In this document: in pieces, positions 671 to 6,361 of the stretch
Numbering within the stretch: position 1 is the first letter of the stretch
How the letters are laid out: each line of letters begins with the position of its first letter
NCBI GenBank assembly: GCA_946886185.1
Contig: CAMPIC010000181.1
Coordinates: 1 to 6,361 of the forward strand
From: an uncultured bacterium
GTDB lineage: Bacteria > Eisenbacteria > RBG-16-71-46 > CAIMUX01
DNA: 6,361 nt
Direction: 5' to 3'
The notes under the pieces: model-generated
Seen by the model: the letters and a program-made list of their open reading frames with translations, nothing else
Database searches by the model: none
Told to the model about the DNA's origin: nothing
Position numbers and translations under genes: made by a program

Positions 671-725
671 AGGGAGATATCGGAATGGCCGCGCCGCCTC
701 CCAACTCGAACAGGGCGAGCCCGAC

Positions 726-738
726 GGGAAAATTTCCC
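726..738. repeat. Palindrome GGGAAA-A-TTTCCC
   Basis: A perfect 6+6 palindrome around a single A, AT-rich at its centre in otherwise GC-rich DNA, between two divergent genes. This looks like a possible binding site for a dimeric regulator. The factor is unknown. Confidence 0.4.
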
Positions 739-823
739 ACCCGGGCGGAGAAGTGGGCAATTTGCGCGACCGCGGCGTTCCGTTCCGGGAGCCGTTCGGG
801 GTACCATCATTCGGCCGGGGATC

Positions 824-841
824 GAGCGAATCCCTTCGCTC
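824..841 (+). promoter_or_regulatory. Hairpin in the leader of the protease gene
   Basis: GAGCGAA (824-830), loop TCCC, TTCGCTC (835-841) form a perfect 7-bp stem with a 4-nt loop, ending 35 bases before the protease ATG. A TTTT run occurs 6 bases after the stem (848-851), so it may act as a weak attenuator-like or mRNA-stabilising hairpin. Function is inferred from structure and position only. Confidence 0.45.
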
Positions 842-876
842 ACCCAGTTTTGCGCGCATCCGGAGGGAAAGTGACC

Positions 877-2616
877 ATGAAGCGCATTGTCTTGCTTGCC
901 GCGTGCTGTTTCTTGACCCAGCCGGCTCTGGCGGAGTCGGAGCTCGCTCCGAGAGTGGTCGGTCCGCTCGAGACCTGGTCCGCCGCGGACGCCGACCTCT
1001 TCGATCCCGCCTGGCTGCACGTCAAGTTCGTCGAGGGATCGGAGACCGCGATCCATGCCGACCGGTTCACCGACCCGACGCTCGATCTGTCGGCGGTCAA
1101 TGCGGCGCTGCAGCGCGGACACGCCGTCGAAGTGCGGCGCACCTTCCAGAAAGACCGCGCGCTCCTTCGCGAGTGGAAGCGGGAGGGCGAGCTTCGCAGC
1201 GGCGCGACCGGACCGGATCTCTCCCTCTGGTTCGACGTGCGCGTGGAAGGCGGACCGGCGCGCGTCGCGCAGCTCGTGAATGGGCTCAACGCATGCGCGG
1301 CGGTCGAGATCGCGCATCCGGCAATGGGAGTTCAGTCCGCCGTCCTCCGAACCGAGTCGATGCCGCACGCTGCTCATCGTGGCGGCACTCCCGACTTCAG
1401 CGGAATGCAGCAGTATCTCTACGACGCTCCTGCGGGTCTCGAAGGTCCGGCGGCCTGGTTGGTTGCCGGTGGGAAAGGGGACGGTCTGAAGTTCATCGAC
1501 GTCGAGCTCGCCTGGACGGAAGACCACGAAGACTTCGACGACAGCAAGCTGTTCTATCAAGGGGGCGCAACCGAGGACCCTGGCTACGAACCGCACGGTA
1601 CCGCGGTTTTGGGAGAGGTGATCGGACAGCACAACGCCTACGGAGTGAGCGGATTCGCGCCGGACGTGCAATACGGGCGAGTTGCGGTCACCGTTTCCGA
1701 GTGGCCGAACGTGCCGCACTACTTCCAGGAAGCGATCGACCAACTGGACGCGGGCGATGTCTGGTTGATCGAGCTGCAGACGAATCAGGTCCTTCCGATG
1801 GAGCACGTGCAGGTGAACTACGACGTCATCTGGACCGGATGCTGGTCGCGCGGAGTCGTTTGCATCGAAGCCGCCGGCAACGGCTCCTGGAATCTCGACA
1901 GCGCCCAGTTTGGAGGACTGTTCGATCGCAACGTCCGCGATTCCGGCGCCATCATGGTCGGCGCGGGAACTCCATTCGGGCTCGTCGCCGAGTCGTTCTC
2001 CAACTACGGAACGCGGTGCGACGCGCATGCCTGGGGATCGCAGATCGTGACCACGGGCTATGGGGACCTCTACAACGAAGGACCGCTCCAGACGCGGTAC
2101 ACCGATGGCTTCGGCGGCACCTCGGGCGCCTCGCCGATGGTGACGGGAGCCGCGCTCTGCCTACAGGGAATCGCGATCGCCAATCAAGCGCGCCGTCTCA
2201 CTCCGCTCGAGCTGCGCACGCTCATCACCGAGACGGGGACTCCGCAGCAGGGAACGCGCTTGATCGGTCCGCGGCCCAATCTGGAGGTGGCGGTGGAGAC
2301 TCTGCTCGACGCGGCCTCCGTGCCCGCATCCGCTGCGTCGCGTGCACTCAATCTCGTGGTCAGCCCCAATCCGTTCCACGATGCGTCCGAGATCCGGTTC
2401 GCCGCTCCGGACGCGGGATTCGGAAGCGTGGACGTGTTCGATGCGACTGGCCGTCAGGTCCGCCAGCTTTGGACTGGAAAGATGGCGGCGGGAACGCAGG
2501 CCATGACGTGGGATGGGCGAGACGACGCGGGCCAGATGGCGCCGAGCGGTGTCTACTACGTCCGCATCAACGTGAACGACGTCAACGCCACGAGGACCGT
2601 GCAAAGGATCCGTTGA
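877..2616 (+). CDS. Secreted subtilisin-like serine protease (S8) with FlgD/T9SS-type C-terminal domain
   Basis: This 579-residue protein has a signal peptide (1-19, cut after PALA) and a putative N-terminal propeptide-like region to about residue 195. The S8 catalytic domain carries Asp208 in 'KFIDVELAW', His240 in 'PHGTAVLGEV', the oxyanion Asn335 in 'AAGNGS' and the nucleophile Ser416 in 'GGTSGASPMVTGAA'. Spacing between these residues is close to that of subtilisin, so the enzyme should be active. The last ~90 residues form a FlgD-like beta-sandwich with 'SPNPF' at 496-500, 'WDGRDDAG' from 545 and 'GVYYVRI' at 558-564; this domain is common at the ends of secreted proteins in FCB-group bacteria, where it often serves as a sorting signal or surface anchor. 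The ATG at 877 has GGAGGG 9 nt upstream; an in-frame GTG at 871 would be only 3 nt from it. Probably a monocistronic, exported degradative protease. Confidence 0.93.
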   Translation: MKRIVLLAACCFLTQPALAESELAPRVVGPLETWSAADADLFDPAWLHVKFVEGSETAIHADRFTDPTLDLSAVNAALQRGHAVEVRRTFQKDRALLREWKREGELRSGATGPDLSLWFDVRVEGGPARVAQLVNGLNACAAVEIAHPAMGVQSAVLRTESMPHAAHRGGTPDFSGMQQYLYDAPAGLEGPAAWLVAGGKGDGLKFIDVELAWTEDHEDFDDSKLFYQGGATEDPGYEPHGTAVLGEVIGQHNAYGVSGFAPDVQYGRVAVTVSEWPNVPHYFQEAIDQLDAGDVWLIELQTNQVLPMEHVQVNYDVIWTGCWSRGVVCIEAAGNGSWNLDSAQFGGLFDRNVRDSGAIMVGAGTPFGLVAESFSNYGTRCDAHAWGSQIVTTGYGDLYNEGPLQTRYTDGFGGTSGASPMVTGAALCLQGIAIANQARRLTPLELRTLITETGTPQQGTRLIGPRPNLEVAVETLLDAASVPASAASRALNLVVSPNPFHDASEIRFAAPDAGFGSVDVFDATGRQVRQLWTGKMAAGTQAMTWDGRDDAGQMAPSGVYYVRINVNDVNATRTVQRIR

Positions 2617-2728: not shown

Positions 2729-3892
2729 TTACGCTTCGCTGCCGGTGTAGCGCGACCGGAGCAGGCAGGCGGCTTGCACCATGCTGCGGAGCTTCGCGGC
2801 CGCGATCTCGTGCTCGTTGACGCAGCGGTTGGCGAAGCAGCCGAAGCCGCAGTCGGGGTTCAAGAAGATCTGATCGGGCGAGAAGTACTGGAGCGCCTGC
2901 TCGACGCGCTCCACGATCTCGTCCACCGACTCCACCTCATCGGTACGCGGGTTGACGACGCCGAGGCCGATCTCGCGCCCCGCGAGCGCGCGCCCCACGA
3001 TCGCGATCTCTCCCGCGCGGGGAGTGGAATGCTCCAGCACGAACTGGTGGACGCGCATCTTCTGGAACGCGGGCACGAGCGGAGCATAATCGCCCGTCAG
3101 GAGCACGCTCTCGTCCTTGCTCCAGTTTCCGCGGCAGACGTGCAGTCCGATCCGAGGACCGGTCACTCCCTCGATCACGCGGTTCAGAAGGTCGGCTGCG
3201 TAATTCAACTCCGTACCCGCGTCCCGGCGGGTTGCCAGAGTCGCTCACATGAAGGTTCGCCGGCCGGCATCCTCGGAGAGCACGATCTCGGTCAGGACCG
3301 GCTCGTCGAACTGGACGAATTCGCATCCCGCGGCGGCCAGTTCGAAAAGCTCTTCGCGCAGGATTCGCACGACATCCTCGCCCATCTCCACCTTGTCTCG
3401 ATAACCCGCCTGCGAGAACTGACTGACCCACATCGCGCGAGTGAGGAGATACGGCCCCGGCAGCGTGATCTTGACGGGGCGGTCGGTAAGCGTGCGCAGG
3501 AACGCGAGCTCCTCGCCGGTCAGAGACTCGCGGCGTTCGAGCCGTCCGATGCAGGTCGGATTCTTGATCGCGGAGGCGGGGACGTCGAGCGTCGTCAACA
3601 TCTCCTCGAACGAGGCCTTGTCCTCGACCGTGTCGAGCATTTCGGCGAGCGACATCAGCTTGGTTCCGGCCAGCTTGTCGGTCACGAAGGAGTAGAAGTT
3701 GTCGCGCCGGATCTCGCCGTCCACCACGTAGTCGACTCCGGCATCCAGCTGCGCTTGTACGCACGCTTCGACTTCGCGATTCGCGATCTCGGTGAACGCG
3801 TCGCGCGTGATCCGCCCCGCCTGTCGATCGCGCAGCGCCCCGAGAAGCGCGCGCGACCGCGGCCAGCTCCCGACTTGCGTCACCTCGAACAT
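2729..3892 (-). CDS. MetE-like methyltransferase read as a selenoprotein (in-frame TGA = Sec216)
   Basis: Read through one TGA, this is a 387-residue protein of the cobalamin-independent methionine synthase II (MetE catalytic domain) family, whose usual single-domain length is similar. The N-terminal part has 'TQVGSWPRS' (5-13), 'VDGEIRRDNFYSFV' (57-70), 'LPGPYLL' (144-150) and 'VQFDEPVL' (193-200). The TGA falls at residue 216, just after 'GRRTFM'. The C-terminal part carries the expected zinc ligands: His251 and Cys253 in 'HVCRGNWS', Glu287 in 'VLEHSTPRAG' and Cys348 in 'NPDCGFG'. MetE-family enzymes use this zinc to activate a thiol for alkylation: methyl to homocysteine in methionine synthases, including short folate-independent core-MetE types, or epoxide to coenzyme M in epoxyalkane:CoM transferases. 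The substrate here is unknown. The frame is identical on both sides of the TGA and a SECIS-like hairpin follows it, favouring selenocysteine over a nonsense mutation. The ATG at 3892 has GGAGG 4 nt upstream. Extra cysteines at 352 and 357 are unusual. Last gene of the minus-strand cluster. Family assignment is firm; Sec is strongly supported but not proven. Confidence 0.85.
3206..3243 (-). promoter_or_regulatory. Candidate bacterial SECIS element
   Basis: Read on the minus strand, starting one base after the TGA: lower stem CGACTCTG pairs with CGGAGTTG (8 bp, two of them G-U), a 3/1 internal loop (GCA against A), upper stem ACCCGC pairs with GCGGGT (6 bp), apical loop CGGGAC (6 nt). The loop has G at its second position and begins 18 nt after the TGA. 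Bacterial SECIS elements lie in the coding sequence right after the UGA, with an apical loop of a few nucleotides, a G in its first two positions and a UGA-to-loop distance of roughly 16-37 nt. All are met. It would be bound by SelB carrying Sec-tRNA. Folding was done by eye, without energy calculation. Confidence 0.8.
3245..3247 (-). other. In-frame TGA, predicted selenocysteine codon
   Basis: The plus-strand TCA reads TGA on the coding strand, codon 216 of the MetE-like gene, between ATG (Met215) and GCG (Ala217). The frame upstream and downstream is the same, so no frameshift is involved. From my memory of the family, homologues tend to have Cys at the matching 'TFM-C-A' position, which is the usual exchange for Sec; an alignment would confirm this. 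Confidence 0.8.
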
Positions 3893-3896
3893 GGAA

Positions 3897-3901
3897 CCTC
3901 C
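3897..3901 (-). promoter_or_regulatory. Ribosome binding site of the MetE-like gene
   Basis: GGAGG on the minus strand, 4 nt before the ATG at 3892. It supports this start rather than the upstream in-frame ATG at 3955, which would add 21 residues with no family resemblance. Confidence 0.65.
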
Positions 3902-4020: not shown

Positions 4021-4767
4021 TCACAAAATCACCAGCTTGGTGACGAGCGCCGTTGCCTTCGAGAGCGTTGCCGCCACGGGGGAGCGCTCCACCGTCCGAT
4101 CCCACGCGGCTTGCACGAGCGCATTGTCCGCCATCGTCGAAGCGAAGCAGCGCACCTCGATCTGCACCAGACTGGGATCTCCTTCTCCGATTCCCAGATG
4201 CGCCAACGGATTTCCGAGCCGTCCCTTCACGGTCAGCTCGATGTCGTCGACCTCGACTCCCGCGCGGGCGCACTCGGTCGCGAACCCCGTGGAGAGCGCG
4301 GTTCCGAGCGAGCCCAGGAGCAGCTCGATCGCGGATGGATGGACATCCTTCTCCTCGAAACTCGCCGGCTGTCCCGCCTTGAAGGCGAAGTTGCGGCAGT
4401 AGGCGGTGCTTTCGAGGTGGCCGGTGGAGCGGACCCGGACACGCCACTCGTACGACTCCGCTTTCTTCTTGTCCGCTTCGAGCGCCTTCTCTTCCGCTTC
4501 GGCCGCATGACCGCTCTTGCGCACGAAATACCGCACCGTCACGCGATCTTCTTCGCCGACTGCGCCGAGGTATTCGTGGCCCACCATCCGGCACCAAGGC
4601 GGAAGGTCGGAACGCACCGACGGCTCACGCGAGCGCATCTCCAGGATGCCACCGGTCGGAACCTGAAGCATGTGCTCACGGATGAGCAGCACGAGCCCCG
4701 ATCCGCAGTCGAGGTCCCCGCCCTCGAACACGCGATCCGGCTTCAGTTGCTCGAGATCGTCCGACAC
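4021..4767 (-). CDS. TusA-like / OsmC-like fusion protein, OsmC domain without catalytic cysteines
   Basis: A 248-residue two-domain protein. Residues about 12-84 are a TusA/SirA-type sulfur-carrier module with 'GGDLDCGSGLVLLIRE' (Cys21) and 'LPPWCRMVGHEYL' (Cys59); Cys21 is followed by Gly instead of the classical CPxP. A charged, Ala/Lys/Glu-rich linker (about 86-106) leads to an OsmC-type domain (about 107-248): 'FKAGQPASFEEKDVHPSAIELLLGSLG' region, 'VEVDDIELTVKGRLGNPL' and 'ERSPVAATLSKA'. Typical OsmC peroxidases have two reactive cysteines, one in the helix after the 'ELLL..LG' motif and one in a 'CPV..TL' motif; here these places hold Ala157 and Ser229, so thiol peroxidase activity is not expected. 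A binding or scaffold role in sulfur transfer is possible. The GTG start at 4767 has GGAGGAG 6 nt upstream; the frame stays open to 4959 but that stretch resembles nothing. A 121-base gap separates it from the DsrE-like gene upstream. Confidence 0.85.
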   Translation of the reverse strand: MSDDLEQLKPDRVFEGGDLDCGSGLVLLIREHMLQVPTGGILEMRSREPSVRSDLPPWCRMVGHEYLGAVGEEDRVTVRYFVRKSGHAAEAEEKALEADKKKAESYEWRVRVRSTGHLESTAYCRNFAFKAGQPASFEEKDVHPSAIELLLGSLGTALSTGFATECARAGVEVDDIELTVKGRLGNPLAHLGIGEGDPSLVQIEVRCFASTMADNALVQAAWDRTVERSPVAATLSKATALVTKLVIL

Positions 4768-4888: not shown

Positions 4889-5254
4889 CTAGTACGTGAT
4901 GCTGGGCGCGCCGTCCGACAGGAACTCCACCAGCGCCGCGCCTCCGGCCGGGGTCGCACCCTCGATCAACTGCTCCGGCTCGATCCCACGCTTCTTCATG
5001 CAGGGCGTGCAGACGAGGATGCGGCCGCCTCCAGCGACGAACTTGTCCACCAGCTCCTTGAGAGGAGCGAACGGAGCGCCTTCGACGATCTTCTCGTACT
5101 CGCCCTTCACCGCAGCCCAGACTCCGTCCGTCGAGAGGAACACCATGGTCTCCTTCTCGCTCCCGAGTGCGGCGTTCGCCACCACGAATCCGACCGTGGC
5201 CTTGTCTCCGTCCTGCTTGCAGTGTGTGATCGAAACGCAAAACTTGTTGCTCAT
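4889..5254 (-). CDS. DsrE/DsrF-like sulfur-transfer family protein
   Basis: A 121-residue soluble protein with the DsrE-like alpha/beta fold pattern: an N-terminal strand 'KFCVSITH', a helix with 'DKATVGFVVANAAL' (18-30), 'TMVFLSTDGVWAAVKG' (37-51) and a C-terminal half with 'GGGRILVCTPCMKKRGI' (75-91), 'LIEGATPAGGAALVEFL' (96-112). The CTPC motif (Cys82, Cys85) sits where family members carry their reactive cysteine(s). DsrE-like proteins pass persulfide sulfur between carriers, often with a TusA partner, and this gene lies between two TusA-like genes. The start is ATG 5254 with AAGGAG 6 nt upstream; the adjoining in-frame GTG at 5257 would be only 3 nt from it. The TAG stop at 4889 matches a natural family C-terminus. 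No in-frame TGA is present. Confident in the family; donor and acceptor are inferred. Confidence 0.88.
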   Translation of the reverse strand: MSNKFCVSITHCKQDGDKATVGFVVANAALGSEKETMVFLSTDGVWAAVKGEYEKIVEGAPFAPLKELVDKFVAGGGRILVCTPCMKKRGIEPEQLIEGATPAGGAALVEFLSDGAPSITY

Positions 5255-5283
5255 CACGTTCTCCTTTCCTGCGCCCTATATCC

Positions 5284-5337: not shown

Positions 5338-5619
5338 TCATGCCGATTTGACCTTCGTCAAATAGTAGGGATGGCGTGCTTCGAGAAACTCGTGTCCGGT
5401 GACGCGGCACCATGCCGGAATCTCGACCGGCGCGCCCACATCGAGCGCGTGGATCGCGACATGCGTTCCGGGAGGAAGCTTCCGGAAGTGAGTTCGCAGA
5501 TCCAGGATCATCTCTCCGCACCCGGTGTCGCCGCCGTCGAAGCGCGACTCCGGATTCCAGTCGGAGGGAAGATTCATCCAGGGATCCGCTCCGGATGATC
5601 CATGCTTCTCCCGCGTCAT
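5338..5619 (-). CDS. TusA-like sulfur-carrier protein with Cys-Gly motif
   Basis: A 93-residue protein of the TusA/SirA family. After a short polar N-terminus it has 'FDGGDTGCGEMILDLR' (27-42; Cys34), a middle strand 'GTHVAIHALDVGAPVEIPAW' (51-70) and 'CRVTGHEFLEARHPYYLTKV' (71-90; Cys71). Cys34 occupies the place of the reactive cysteine in CPxP of classical TusA but is followed by Gly. TusA proteins carry a persulfide on this cysteine and hand it to partners such as DsrE-like proteins. The module resembles the N-terminal half of the TusA-OsmC fusion (shared 'WCR..GHE'), so the two are probably paralogous. The ATG at 5619 overlaps the TGA of the outer-membrane protein gene (ATGA), with AGGA 7 nt upstream, showing translational coupling. 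A longer upstream reading would lie inside the neighbour and is rejected. The C-terminus at a TGA looks natural, so I do not read that stop as Sec. Confidence 0.85.
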   Translation of the reverse strand: MTREKHGSSGADPWMNLPSDWNPESRFDGGDTGCGEMILDLRTHFRKLPPGTHVAIHALDVGAPVEIPAWCRVTGHEFLEARHPYYLTKVKSA

Positions 5620-6361
5620 CGAGAGGTCCTGACTTGATAGGATAGCCCGAGCTGCAGCGCCCACTCCTGCACGTTTCCGCCATTCTGCTGCACGTCGCGA
5701 TAGACTGTGAACGGAACGCCCGCCGACAACGACATTGCGTCCGTGGGCGTCCACGCCAGAGCCGGGCCCACCGCGACGATCGGTCCTGCGCGCCGGAATC
5801 CGATGGTGTCGCCGAACAGATCGTCGTAGGGAATCCAGGCGAAGTCGGTCGACACGCTCAAGGAAAGACGGCCCAGTGGGCTCTCTCCGATGTTGAAAGG
5901 AGAGATCAGGCTCAGCCGCGCGACGACAGCGTCGGAATCGGAGTTTTTCTCAGGGCCCATGCCGGTCAGCTCATGGCGGAAGTTGTTCCCGCTCGTCGCG
6001 GACGGCGTGAACACATAGCGCGCCGAGAACGCAGCGCCCAGCCGGCTCGCCAATGCAGCGTTGCCTCCCAGCTCGACGATCCCCGCCGCGTTGCCGGTGC
6101 CGGTTTGAGCCGCCAGATCTTTGGTCACCTTGGTCCCGTTCTGCCGGGTGAACTGTCCGTCGGACTCGCCCGTCGGAAGGCGCAGACCCGCGGCGGCGTA
6201 CCAGCGCGGACCGCTCTCTTCATTTCGGAACCAGTACCGGCCCAAGAGGCGGATATCGCCGAGGCCGTTGGCCTCCATCGTCCCGGCCACGCCTCCGAAC
6301 TCGCGACTCTGCTCGGTGTGCACGAACGGGAACTCCCCGACCAGCGTGAAACCTCTCGCGA
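5616..6361 (-). CDS. Outer-membrane beta-barrel (transporter-like) protein, C-terminal part
   Basis: The frame enters from the right edge and ends at TGA 5618-5616; about 247 residues are visible and the N-terminus with signal peptide is missing. A GTG at 6323 is internal, because the frame stays open and strand-like upstream ('GFTLVGEFPFVHTEQ'). The sequence alternates short amphipathic strands with Gly/Asp/Asn turns: 'GLGDIRLLGRYWF', 'YAAAGLRLPTGESDG', 'LGAAFSARYVFTP', 'LGRLSLSVSTDFAWIPYDD', 'GPIVAVGPALAWTPTDAMSLSAGVPFTVYR', 'EWALQLGLSYQV'. The 'GLGD...' plus 'LPTGESDG' pair resembles the putative outer-membrane channel family often labelled 'MetA-pathway of phenol degradation / transporter'. 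Its stop codon overlaps the start of the TusA-like gene by ATGA, so it is co-transcribed with the sulfur cluster and might pass a substrate for it. The barrel call is firm, the subfamily moderate, and the substrate unknown. Confidence 0.8.
   Translation of the reverse strand, partial: ARGFTLVGEFPFVHTEQSREFGGVAGTMEANGLGDIRLLGRYWFRNEESGPRWYAAAGLRLPTGESDGQFTRQNGTKVTKDLAAQTGTGNAAGIVELGGNAALASRLGAAFSARYVFTPSATSGNNFRHELTGMGPEKNSDSDAVVARLSLISPFNIGESPLGRLSLSVSTDFAWIPYDDLFGDTIGFRRAGPIVAVGPALAWTPTDAMSLSAGVPFTVYRDVQQNGGNVQEWALQLGLSYQVRTSR

What the first reader, a model, noticed from the sequence alone, without database searches (positions are those of the whole stretch)
2729..3892. MetE-like methyltransferase that appears to be an undescribed selenoprotein (Sec216)
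Two fragments, 3892-3245 and 3208-2729, are in the same frame and together make one full-length MetE-catalytic-domain protein, separated only by TGA at 3247-3245. All predicted zinc ligands (His251, Cys253, Glu287, Cys348) lie after the TGA, so the first fragment alone could not work, and the second has no usable start: the TTG at 3208 directly abuts GGAG with no spacer. Conserved motifs are preserved on both sides, unlike a decaying gene. A SECIS-like hairpin follows immediately. I do not recall MetE-family enzymes among the well-known selenoprotein families. Sec at this point, between the 'DEP' motif and the zinc His-x-Cys, could add a nucleophile, redox partner or metal ligand.
Basis: partly seen in the sequence, partly recalled or inferred. 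Interest (0 to 1): 0.93.

Follow-up and report, generated by a model that had tools for sequence, protein, structure and literature searches.

The report
MetE-like selenoprotein with sulfur-carrier cassette
A bacterial gene related to methionine synthase carries an in-frame TGA codon that is predicted to be read as the rare amino acid selenocysteine, and it sits beside genes resembling sulfur-carrier proteins, so it likely marks an undescribed branch of selenium and sulfur chemistry.

Summary
In the best 80 of 407 relatives from named genomes, codon 216 is TGA in 73 and Cys in 7; of 120 listed database proteins 119 have Cys and 1 a gap. No other in-frame stop occurs in 30,757 aligned codons. 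A short hairpin after the TGA is paired in 95% of cells in the TGA genes and mostly lost in the 7 Cys loci; its codons are fixed far beyond codon usage. Most relatives' genomes have selA, selB and tRNA-Sec; the window's genome is not held. Beyond the finding: the gene is part of a cassette (TusA-like, DsrE-like, TusA/OsmC fusion, MetE-like), complete in 65 of 74 TGA loci; in 7 of 81 loci selenium genes lie beside it. Zinc and homocysteine-binding residues are kept, so Sec216 is an extra residue. A 2026 inventory of 119 prokaryotic selenoprotein families/subfamilies has no MetE entry. The reaction is inferred; methyl-selenium or methyl-sulfur transfer is my best guess.

The parts
2729..3892 (-). 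MetE-like gene, 387 residues with the TGA read through
   Evidence: translation with one internal TGA; PF01717 110.1 bits
3245..3247 (-). TGA codon 216, predicted Sec
   Evidence: TGA in 73 and Cys codons in 7 of 80 relatives
3197..3247 (-). SECIS-like region: apical stem-loop at 3232-3215 (stem 6 bp, loop 6 nt), starting 12 nt after the TGA
   Evidence: 95.0% of 438 cells paired against 28-49% when slid; codon excess; fold -21.5 kcal/mol
3897..3901 (-). GGAGG ribosome-binding-like site before ATG 3892
   Evidence: sequence printed
3134..3142 (-). predicted zinc ligands H251 and C253
   Evidence: invariant in 200 rows; align with the MetE H-x-C of 4ztx
3032..3034 (-). predicted zinc ligand E287
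   Evidence: invariant in 200 rows
2849..2851 (-). predicted zinc ligand C348
   Evidence: invariant in 200 rows
3305..3307 (-). D196, counterpart of the Asp that binds the homocysteine amino group in MetE (S9 at 3868-3866 and E60 at 3715-3713 are the other two substrate residues)
   Evidence: D196 and E60 invariant in 200 rows, S9 in 197 with 3 gaps; roles in MetE from PMC7857596 passages
4021..4767 (-). TusA/OsmC-like fusion protein
   Evidence: OsmC 39.6 bits (cut-off 27.5), TusA 22.2 (cut-off 28.6); homologue within 3 kb upstream in 71 of 74 TGA loci, window included
4889..5257 (-). DsrE-like protein with an invariant CxxC
   Evidence: PF02635 51.2 bits, cut-off 22.7; CxxC in 72 of 72 rows
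5338..5577 (-). small TusA-like protein
   Evidence: TusA 23.7 bits, under the cut-off of 28.6; C20 in 72 of 72 best hits, a few of which fall on the fusion's TusA part

Best explanation
Codon 216 (TGA) of this MetE-like gene is predicted to be translated as selenocysteine, directed by the conserved hairpin that starts 12 nt after it, giving a 387-residue zinc-type enzyme that likely works with the TusA-like, DsrE-like and TusA/OsmC-like proteins encoded just upstream. Shown by the calls: TGA/Cys exchange at one otherwise invariant column, RNA-level conservation of the hairpin, the four-gene cassette, kept zinc and homocysteine-binding residues, and selenium genes beside the gene in 7 of 81 loci. 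Inferred: SelB reads the TGA; zinc activates a homocysteine-type thiol as in MetE; the methyl donor is a methylated selenium or sulfur compound; Sec216, in the loop between the Asp that holds the substrate amino group and the zinc His-x-Cys, is the reactive group that takes up the methyl or the freed selenium/sulfur and hands it to the carrier proteins, so that methionine is made and selenide or sulfide is recovered. I hold the Sec claim at about 0.95, the cassette as a working unit at about 0.9, and this catalytic role at about 0.35; the confidence below is for the first sentence.
For: 73 of 80 relatives TGA, 7 Cys; 119 of 120 listed proteins Cys; 0 other stops in 30,757 codons; hairpin pairing 95.0% and codon excess such as GCG 59 of 62 against 17.8 expected and GGT 61 of 71 against 12.7; at least 6 Sec/Cys changes on the tree; selB 38 of 41, tRNA-Sec 27 of 27 and selA 19 of 21 TGA carriers searched; complete cassette in 65 of 74 TGA loci; selD, selA, yedF or tRNA-Sec genes in the flanks of L007, L025, L049, L054, L070, L074, L078; zinc and homocysteine residues invariant. 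A different zinc methyltransferase set of the wider UroD superfamily has been tied to methyl-selenium use (PMC10418091, passages).
Against: The window's own genome is not held, so its Sec machinery is untested. Covariation in the hairpin is weak: one two-sided change, and 26 of 500 shuffles reach the observed values; three Bacteroidota sequences lose four of the six pairs; the lower stem is not conserved; Rfam has no match. Three TGA carriers have no selB over the cut-off. The tRNA-Sec cut-off is also passed by 5 of 14 control genomes. Only 80 of 407 relatives were fetched. Se-gene neighbours are absent from the window and from 74 of 81 loci. The TusA matches are under Pfam's cut-off. No structure model could be made, so the position of Sec216 near zinc is inferred from sequence.
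Confidence: 0.93

Rival explanations
1. It is a Sec-containing core methionine synthase: a folate-domain-less MetE relative that makes methionine from homocysteine with a corrinoid or other ordinary methyl donor; Sec only speeds or protects it, and the cassette supplies sulfide or redox power.
For: Zinc ligands and all three homocysteine-binding residues are kept; core synthases without the folate part exist (PMC7857596, passages); 11 of 20 carrier genomes have no metH over its cut-off.
Against: metH is over the cut-off in 9 of 20 carrier genomes, so methionine synthesis is covered there; the recurring neighbours are sulfur-carrier types and, in 7 loci, selenium genes; no corrinoid protein was recognised among the recurring neighbour families, though not every family was annotated.
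Confidence: 0.35
2. Sec216 serves redox chemistry (for example a selenylsulfide with C352) and the protein is a chalcogen transfer or reduction enzyme that no longer transfers methyl groups.
For: C352 goes with the Sec type and near Cys relatives (70 of 74 and 38 of 38) and is Thr in 88 of 88 distant Cys forms; partners carry conserved Cys and CxxC.
Against: The whole zinc and homocysteine site is kept, which a pure redox protein would not need; 4 of 74 Sec types lack C352.
Confidence: 0.2
3. TGA 216 is a true stop and the two pieces are separate proteins or decayed gene fragments, or a sequencing error.
For: The frame is open on both sides and a TTG start exists at 3208.
Against: Same TGA in 73 of 80 relatives and never TAA or TAG; no other stop in 30,757 codons; hairpin and codon conservation; zinc ligands all lie in the second piece.
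Confidence: 0.02
4. TGA is reassigned to an amino acid throughout this genome.
For: None beyond the in-frame TGA.
Against: Four other genes of the window end in TGA; carriers span many phyla and most have Sec machinery.
Confidence: 0.01

Closest known systems
Cobalamin-independent methionine synthase MetE, catalytic barrel (PF01717)
   Same: PF01717 over the cut-off; zinc ligands and homocysteine-binding residues kept
   Different: No folate-binding N-terminal half; TIGR01371 90.5 of 929.95 bits; an extra RTFM[U/C] segment with Sec/Cys
Core methionine synthases MesA-MesD (PMC7857596, passages)
   Same: Single catalytic barrel with HCEC zinc residues
   Different: None of those passages mentions Sec; here the neighbours are TusA/DsrE/OsmC types; family assignment to MesA-D was not tested with their own models
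YedF (TIGR03527), TusA-like plus DsrE-like fusion linked to SelD (PMC5322559, passages)
   Same: TusA-type and DsrE-type parts, genomic link to selenium genes
   Different: Separate genes here, plus OsmC and the MetE-like enzyme; the window's proteins do not match TIGR03527
Type 1 mlp gene clusters with MtaA-like methyltransferases, tied to methyl-selenium metabolism (PMC10418091, passages)
   Same: Methyltransferases of the same wide UroD superfamily, genomic link to selA/selB/selD
   Different: Those are corrinoid-dependent MtaA-like proteins in anaerobes; here a MetE-like barrel, itself a selenoprotein, with sulfur-carrier partners
The 119 selenoprotein families/subfamilies of PMC13188914 (Table 1 read)
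   Same: In-frame TGA, downstream hairpin, Cys homologues
   Different: No MetE or PF01717 entry; the methyltransferases listed are of arsenite, methylated-DNA and other types. OsmC-like and DsrE-like selenoproteins are listed, but the window's OsmC and DsrE parts carry no TGA

Membership tests
bacterial selenoprotein | in-frame TGA aligned with Cys in homologues | tested here: met
   73 TGA and 7 Cys of 80 loci; 119 Cys and 1 gap of 120 proteins
bacterial selenoprotein | conserved hairpin just after the TGA, absent in Cys genes | tested here: met
   95.0% of cells paired in TGA genes, 11 of 42 cells in the 7 Cys loci, codon excess; covariation itself weak
bacterial selenoprotein | Sec machinery in the same genome | tested here: inconclusive
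   own genome not held; relatives: selB 38 of 41, tRNA-Sec 27 of 27, selA 19 of 21 TGA carriers searched
bacterial selenoprotein | selenium in the purified protein | not testable with these tools
   needs 75Se or mass spectrometry
MetE | catalytic domain PF01717 over cut-off | tested here: met
   110.1 bits, cut-off 21
MetE | zinc ligands H, C, E, C and homocysteine residues S, E, D | tested here: met
   invariant in 200 rows apart from 3 gaps at S9
MetE | folate-binding N-terminal domain and TIGR01371 cut-off | tested here: not met
   PF08267 19.2 of 27 bits; TIGR01371 90.5 of 929.95
core methionine synthase (MesA-MesD) | partner corrinoid protein or MesX nearby | tested here: inconclusive
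   none recognised among recurring neighbour families, but not all were annotated
YedF | TusA-DsrE fusion over TIGR03527 cut-off | tested here: not met
   no TIGR03527 match listed for the window's proteins; separate genes
known selenoprotein families of PMC13188914 | listed family with MetE or PF01717 domain | tested here: not met
   Table 1 read in full

The most novel reading that the evidence does not exclude
A widespread, undescribed selenium/sulfur salvage module: a MetE-fold zinc enzyme with an active-site Sec takes methyl groups off methylated selenium (or sulfur) compounds, makes methionine, and passes the freed selenium through TusA-, DsrE- and TusA/OsmC-type carriers towards SelD. 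It would be the first MetE-family selenoprotein and a route of selenium acquisition distinct from the corrinoid-dependent mlp clusters.
Probability: 0.25. Interest if true: 0.92.

Novelty: new variant of a known kind. Interest (0 to 1): 0.8.

Why it matters
Most characterised selenoproteins have a thioredoxin-like fold with a redox motif (PMC13188914). A Sec residue in a zinc thiol-alkylation barrel would put selenium to a different chemical use. Standard gene calling splits the gene in two, as the ORF listing does here, so it is easily missed. The conserved cassette and its linkage to selD, yedF, selA and selB give a testable lead on how bacteria move selenium and sulfur; the in vivo selenium donor of SelD is described as incompletely elucidated (PMC13188914).

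Tried and rejected
Genetic-code change: rejected, TGA stops four other genes of the window. Decay: rejected, no other stop in 30,757 codons. Sec as a replacement zinc ligand: not favoured, all four ligands kept. Rfam search of 3100-3350: one chance-level hit, 10.5 of 56 bits. Lower stem of the window's hairpin: 49.5% of cells paired, not conserved. SelB as a discriminator in Thermodesulfobacteriota: uninformative, 221 of 247 have it; 4 of 247 carry the gene at E 1e-100, one with a TGA. Verrucomicrobiota: 2 of 240 carry the gene at E 1e-100, both without an internal stop and without a selB hit at E 1e-75, which agrees with Cys forms not needing Sec machinery. Bacillota: 1 of 101, the centre itself, at E 1e-60. 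Solved structures: sequence relatives are MetE-type chains such as 4ztx, 1ypx, 3rpd, 1t7l; none for the DsrE-like protein; TusA 3lvj at E 0.0009 for the fusion. Papers: five searches aimed at a MetE-type selenoprotein and five on neighbouring topics listed no report of one; three listed papers that hold both words were checked by passages and do not describe one. Only open-licence PMC papers are held; supplements could not be read.

Full report
The gene. On the minus strand of the window, 3892-2729 is one reading frame of 387 residues interrupted only by TGA at codon 216, 3247-3245. The joined protein is a MetE-type catalytic barrel: PF01717, 110.1 bits, residues 4-375. No NCBIfam model reaches its cut-off, the best being methionine synthase PRK04326 at 179.5 of 406 bits. 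ATG 3892 is preceded by GGAGG. Four other genes of the window end in TGA: the S8 peptidase and the beta-barrel-like, TusA-like and TusA/OsmC genes. TGA is therefore an ordinary stop here.

Column 216. A scan of one genome per species found 407 relatives, of which the best 80 were kept. At the column of residue 216 the codon is TGA in 73, TGT in 4 and TGC in 3, and nothing else. Of 7987 homologous proteins the best 120 were listed; 119 have Cys there and one, P0003, has a gap that removes six residues around the site. In the 80 loci and the window no other in-frame stop occurs among 30,757 aligned codons. The TGA carriers bear record titles from many phyla, among them Eisenbacteria, Planctomycetota, Thermodesulfobacteriota, Bacteroidota, Verrucomicrobiota, Acidobacteriota, Chloroflexota, Latescibacterota and Pseudomonadota. 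On a tree of 140 rows the Sec/Cys state needs 7 changes; well-supported branches force at least 6; shuffled labels need 46.9 on average. The nearest protein, P0002 (73% identity), is a Cys form inside the window's own well-supported set of four rows.

The hairpin. The 51 nt from the TGA fold at -21.5 kcal/mol, z -2.73, with 4 of 200 shuffles as good. In 74 TGA sequences (73 distinct) the apical stem, positions 16-21 with 28-33, is paired in 95.0% of 438 cells, against 28-49% with partners slid by one to three columns. Two-sided changes are rare: one cell, in L007, and 26 of 500 shuffles reach the observed values, so covariation alone is weak. The stronger sign is codon choice. Compared with each gene's own codon usage, the stem and loop codons are fixed far beyond expectation: ACC 72 of 74 (37.8 expected), CGC 70 of 74 (27.7), CGG/CGT 70 of 70 (25.4), GCG 59 of 62 (17.8), GGT 61 of 71 (12.7). 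Codons +1, +8 and +12 show smaller excesses (40 of 72 against 18.9; 49 of 74 against 29.3; 53 of 74 against 33.8). Codons +2 and +4 show none (39 of 72 against 36.6; 37 of 74 against 36.0). The sequences are related, so these are not independent trials. In the 7 Cys loci only 11 of 42 stem cells pair. The lower stem seen in the window is not conserved, 49.5%. Three Bacteroidota sequences (L010, L020, L034) lose four of the six pairs; other hairpins are predicted there. No Rfam family matches.

Decoding machinery. The window's genome is not held. Among genomes of fetched loci, selB passes its cut-off in 44 of 48: 38 of 41 TGA carriers and 6 of 7 Cys carriers. tRNA-Sec passes in 32 of 33: 27 of 27 TGA carriers and 5 of 6 Cys carriers; but 5 of 14 control genomes also pass, and one TGA carrier (G011) passes only at 47.8 bits. 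selA passes in 20 of 22, 19 of them among 21 TGA carriers. The three TGA carriers without selB over the cut-off (G005, G015, G018) have tRNA-Sec and selA, which points to incomplete assemblies. selD passes in 8 of the 10 genomes searched, 7 of them among 8 Cys carriers. The nearest relative's genome, G001, has a partial selB over the cut-off, tRNA-Sec, a selA fragment at a contig end, and no selD over the cut-off.

The cassette. Upstream of the gene, on the same strand, lie a TusA/OsmC fusion (4767-4021), a DsrE-like protein (5257-4889) and a TusA-like protein (5577-5338). The TusA matches are below Pfam's cut-off, so 'TusA-like' rests on weak scores plus a conserved Cys. All three partners lie within 3 kb on the same strand in 65 of 74 TGA loci, the window included. 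Of the 9 others, 6 have 1264 bases or fewer upstream before the contig ends, and L044, L070 and L074 lack them. Of 7 Cys loci, 3 have all three, 3 only a fusion or OsmC-part match, 1 none. In some loci (L006, L008, L011, L012, L018) the TusA-like gene is downstream. Partner cysteines are conserved: TusA-like C20 in 72 of 72 best hits, a few of which fall on the fusion's TusA part; the DsrE CxxC in 72 of 72. In the window the order is beta-barrel-like protein, TusA-like, DsrE-like, TusA/OsmC, MetE-like; L001 and L002, its nearest loci, share this order.

Link to selenium genes. In 7 of 81 loci selenium genes lie in the flanks. L007: a cysteine desulfurase family protein (TIGR01977 468 bits; Sec lyase SclA second, under its cut-off), YedF (208.2 bits, cut-off 110), a Se/S carrier protein (PF11823), SelD, then the cassette. 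L054: SelD, YedF-like, cassette. L025: YedF-like downstream. L049: a SelD fragment downstream. L074: MetE-like(Sec), SelA, SelB, SelD, tRNA-Sec. L070: MetE-like(Sec), then SelA running off the contig. L078, a Cys form in Siminovitchia: cassette, SelD, SelA, tRNA-Sec, with a selB hit over the cut-off on the same contig. Five loci with selD compare with about 0.14 expected if every genome had one selD in 4.6 Mb (an assumed mean). L070 and L074, which lack the cassette, have an ArsR-rhodanese regulator upstream. The window and 74 of 81 loci in all show no such gene in the sequence held, by the queries used.

How it may work. MetE of T. maritima holds zinc with His618, Cys620, Glu642 and Cys704, near the ends of strands 5, 6 and 8, and Asp577 holds the homocysteine amino group (PMC539065, passages). 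In E. coli the ligands are His641, Cys643, Glu665, Cys726 and the substrate residues Ser433, Glu484, Asp599 (PMC7857596, passages). I take H251, C253, E287, C348 and S9, E60, D196 as the counterparts (alignment to 4ztx, and motif position); they are invariant in 200 rows apart from 3 gaps at S9. Sec216 lies between D196 and H251, in an RTFM[U/C] segment that has no counterpart in the aligned 4ztx MetE. By inference it sits in the loop after strand 4 on the active-site face; no model could be made. C352 goes with the Sec type and its near Cys relatives (70 of 74 and 38 of 38) and is Thr in 88 of 88 distant Cys forms, so it is a candidate partner. I propose zinc activation of a homocysteine-type thiol, a methylated selenium or sulfur compound as methyl donor, and Sec216 as the group that takes up the methyl or the freed chalcogen and passes it to the carriers. 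A parallel exists: corrinoid-dependent MtaA-like methyltransferases of the same wide superfamily, in clusters with sel genes, are proposed to demethylate methyl-selenium compounds and recycle the methyl into methionine (PMC10418091, passages). None of these steps is tested here. Classical methionine synthesis is a live rival; metH is over its cut-off in 9 of 20 carrier genomes.

Novelty. A 2026 review lists 119 prokaryotic selenoprotein families or subfamilies (PMC13188914; passages, and parts 1 and 2 of section 7 with all of Table 1); none is MetE or PF01717. Passages searched in three other surveys name no MetE-type selenoprotein: PMC12013277, PMC9312934, PMC2398784. [quoted passage not shown] the passages shown mention DsrE as a part of YedF. 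Ten paper searches listed no report. Subscription journals and supplements were out of reach, so 'undescribed' means not found there.

Noticed in passing
L026, L035, L049, L071, L075, L076, L079, L085: A variant neighbourhood: an acyl-CoA dehydrogenase-like and a phosphonate-binding-protein-like gene stand upstream of the MetE-like gene, alone with it in Cys forms (L049, L075, L076, L079, L085) and together with the cassette in TGA forms (L026, L035, L071).
   Followed up: partly
L070 2012-2668, L074 4199-4900: An ArsR-rhodanese regulator directly upstream of the MetE-like(Sec) gene, with selA directly downstream.
   Followed up: partly
L008, L017, L039, L051, L063, L068: A LysR-type regulator near the cassette; whether it belongs to the LysR_Se subfamily of PMC5322559 was not tested.
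   Followed up: no
window 685-2616 (+): S8 subtilase with a FlgD-Ig / T9SS type A sorting-like C-terminus.
   Followed up: no
window 5616-6359 (-): Beta-barrel-like protein with no Pfam or NCBIfam match, shared with L001 and L002 just upstream of the cassette.
   Followed up: no
protein P0003: A JGI-sourced protein 69% identical to the query lacks just the six residues around the Sec site, possibly a gene model drawn around a TGA.
   Followed up: no
genome G382 (L085): A Cys-form carrier with a strong selD (430 bits) but no selB hit at E 1e-75, so selenium use without Sec decoding is possible there.
   Followed up: no
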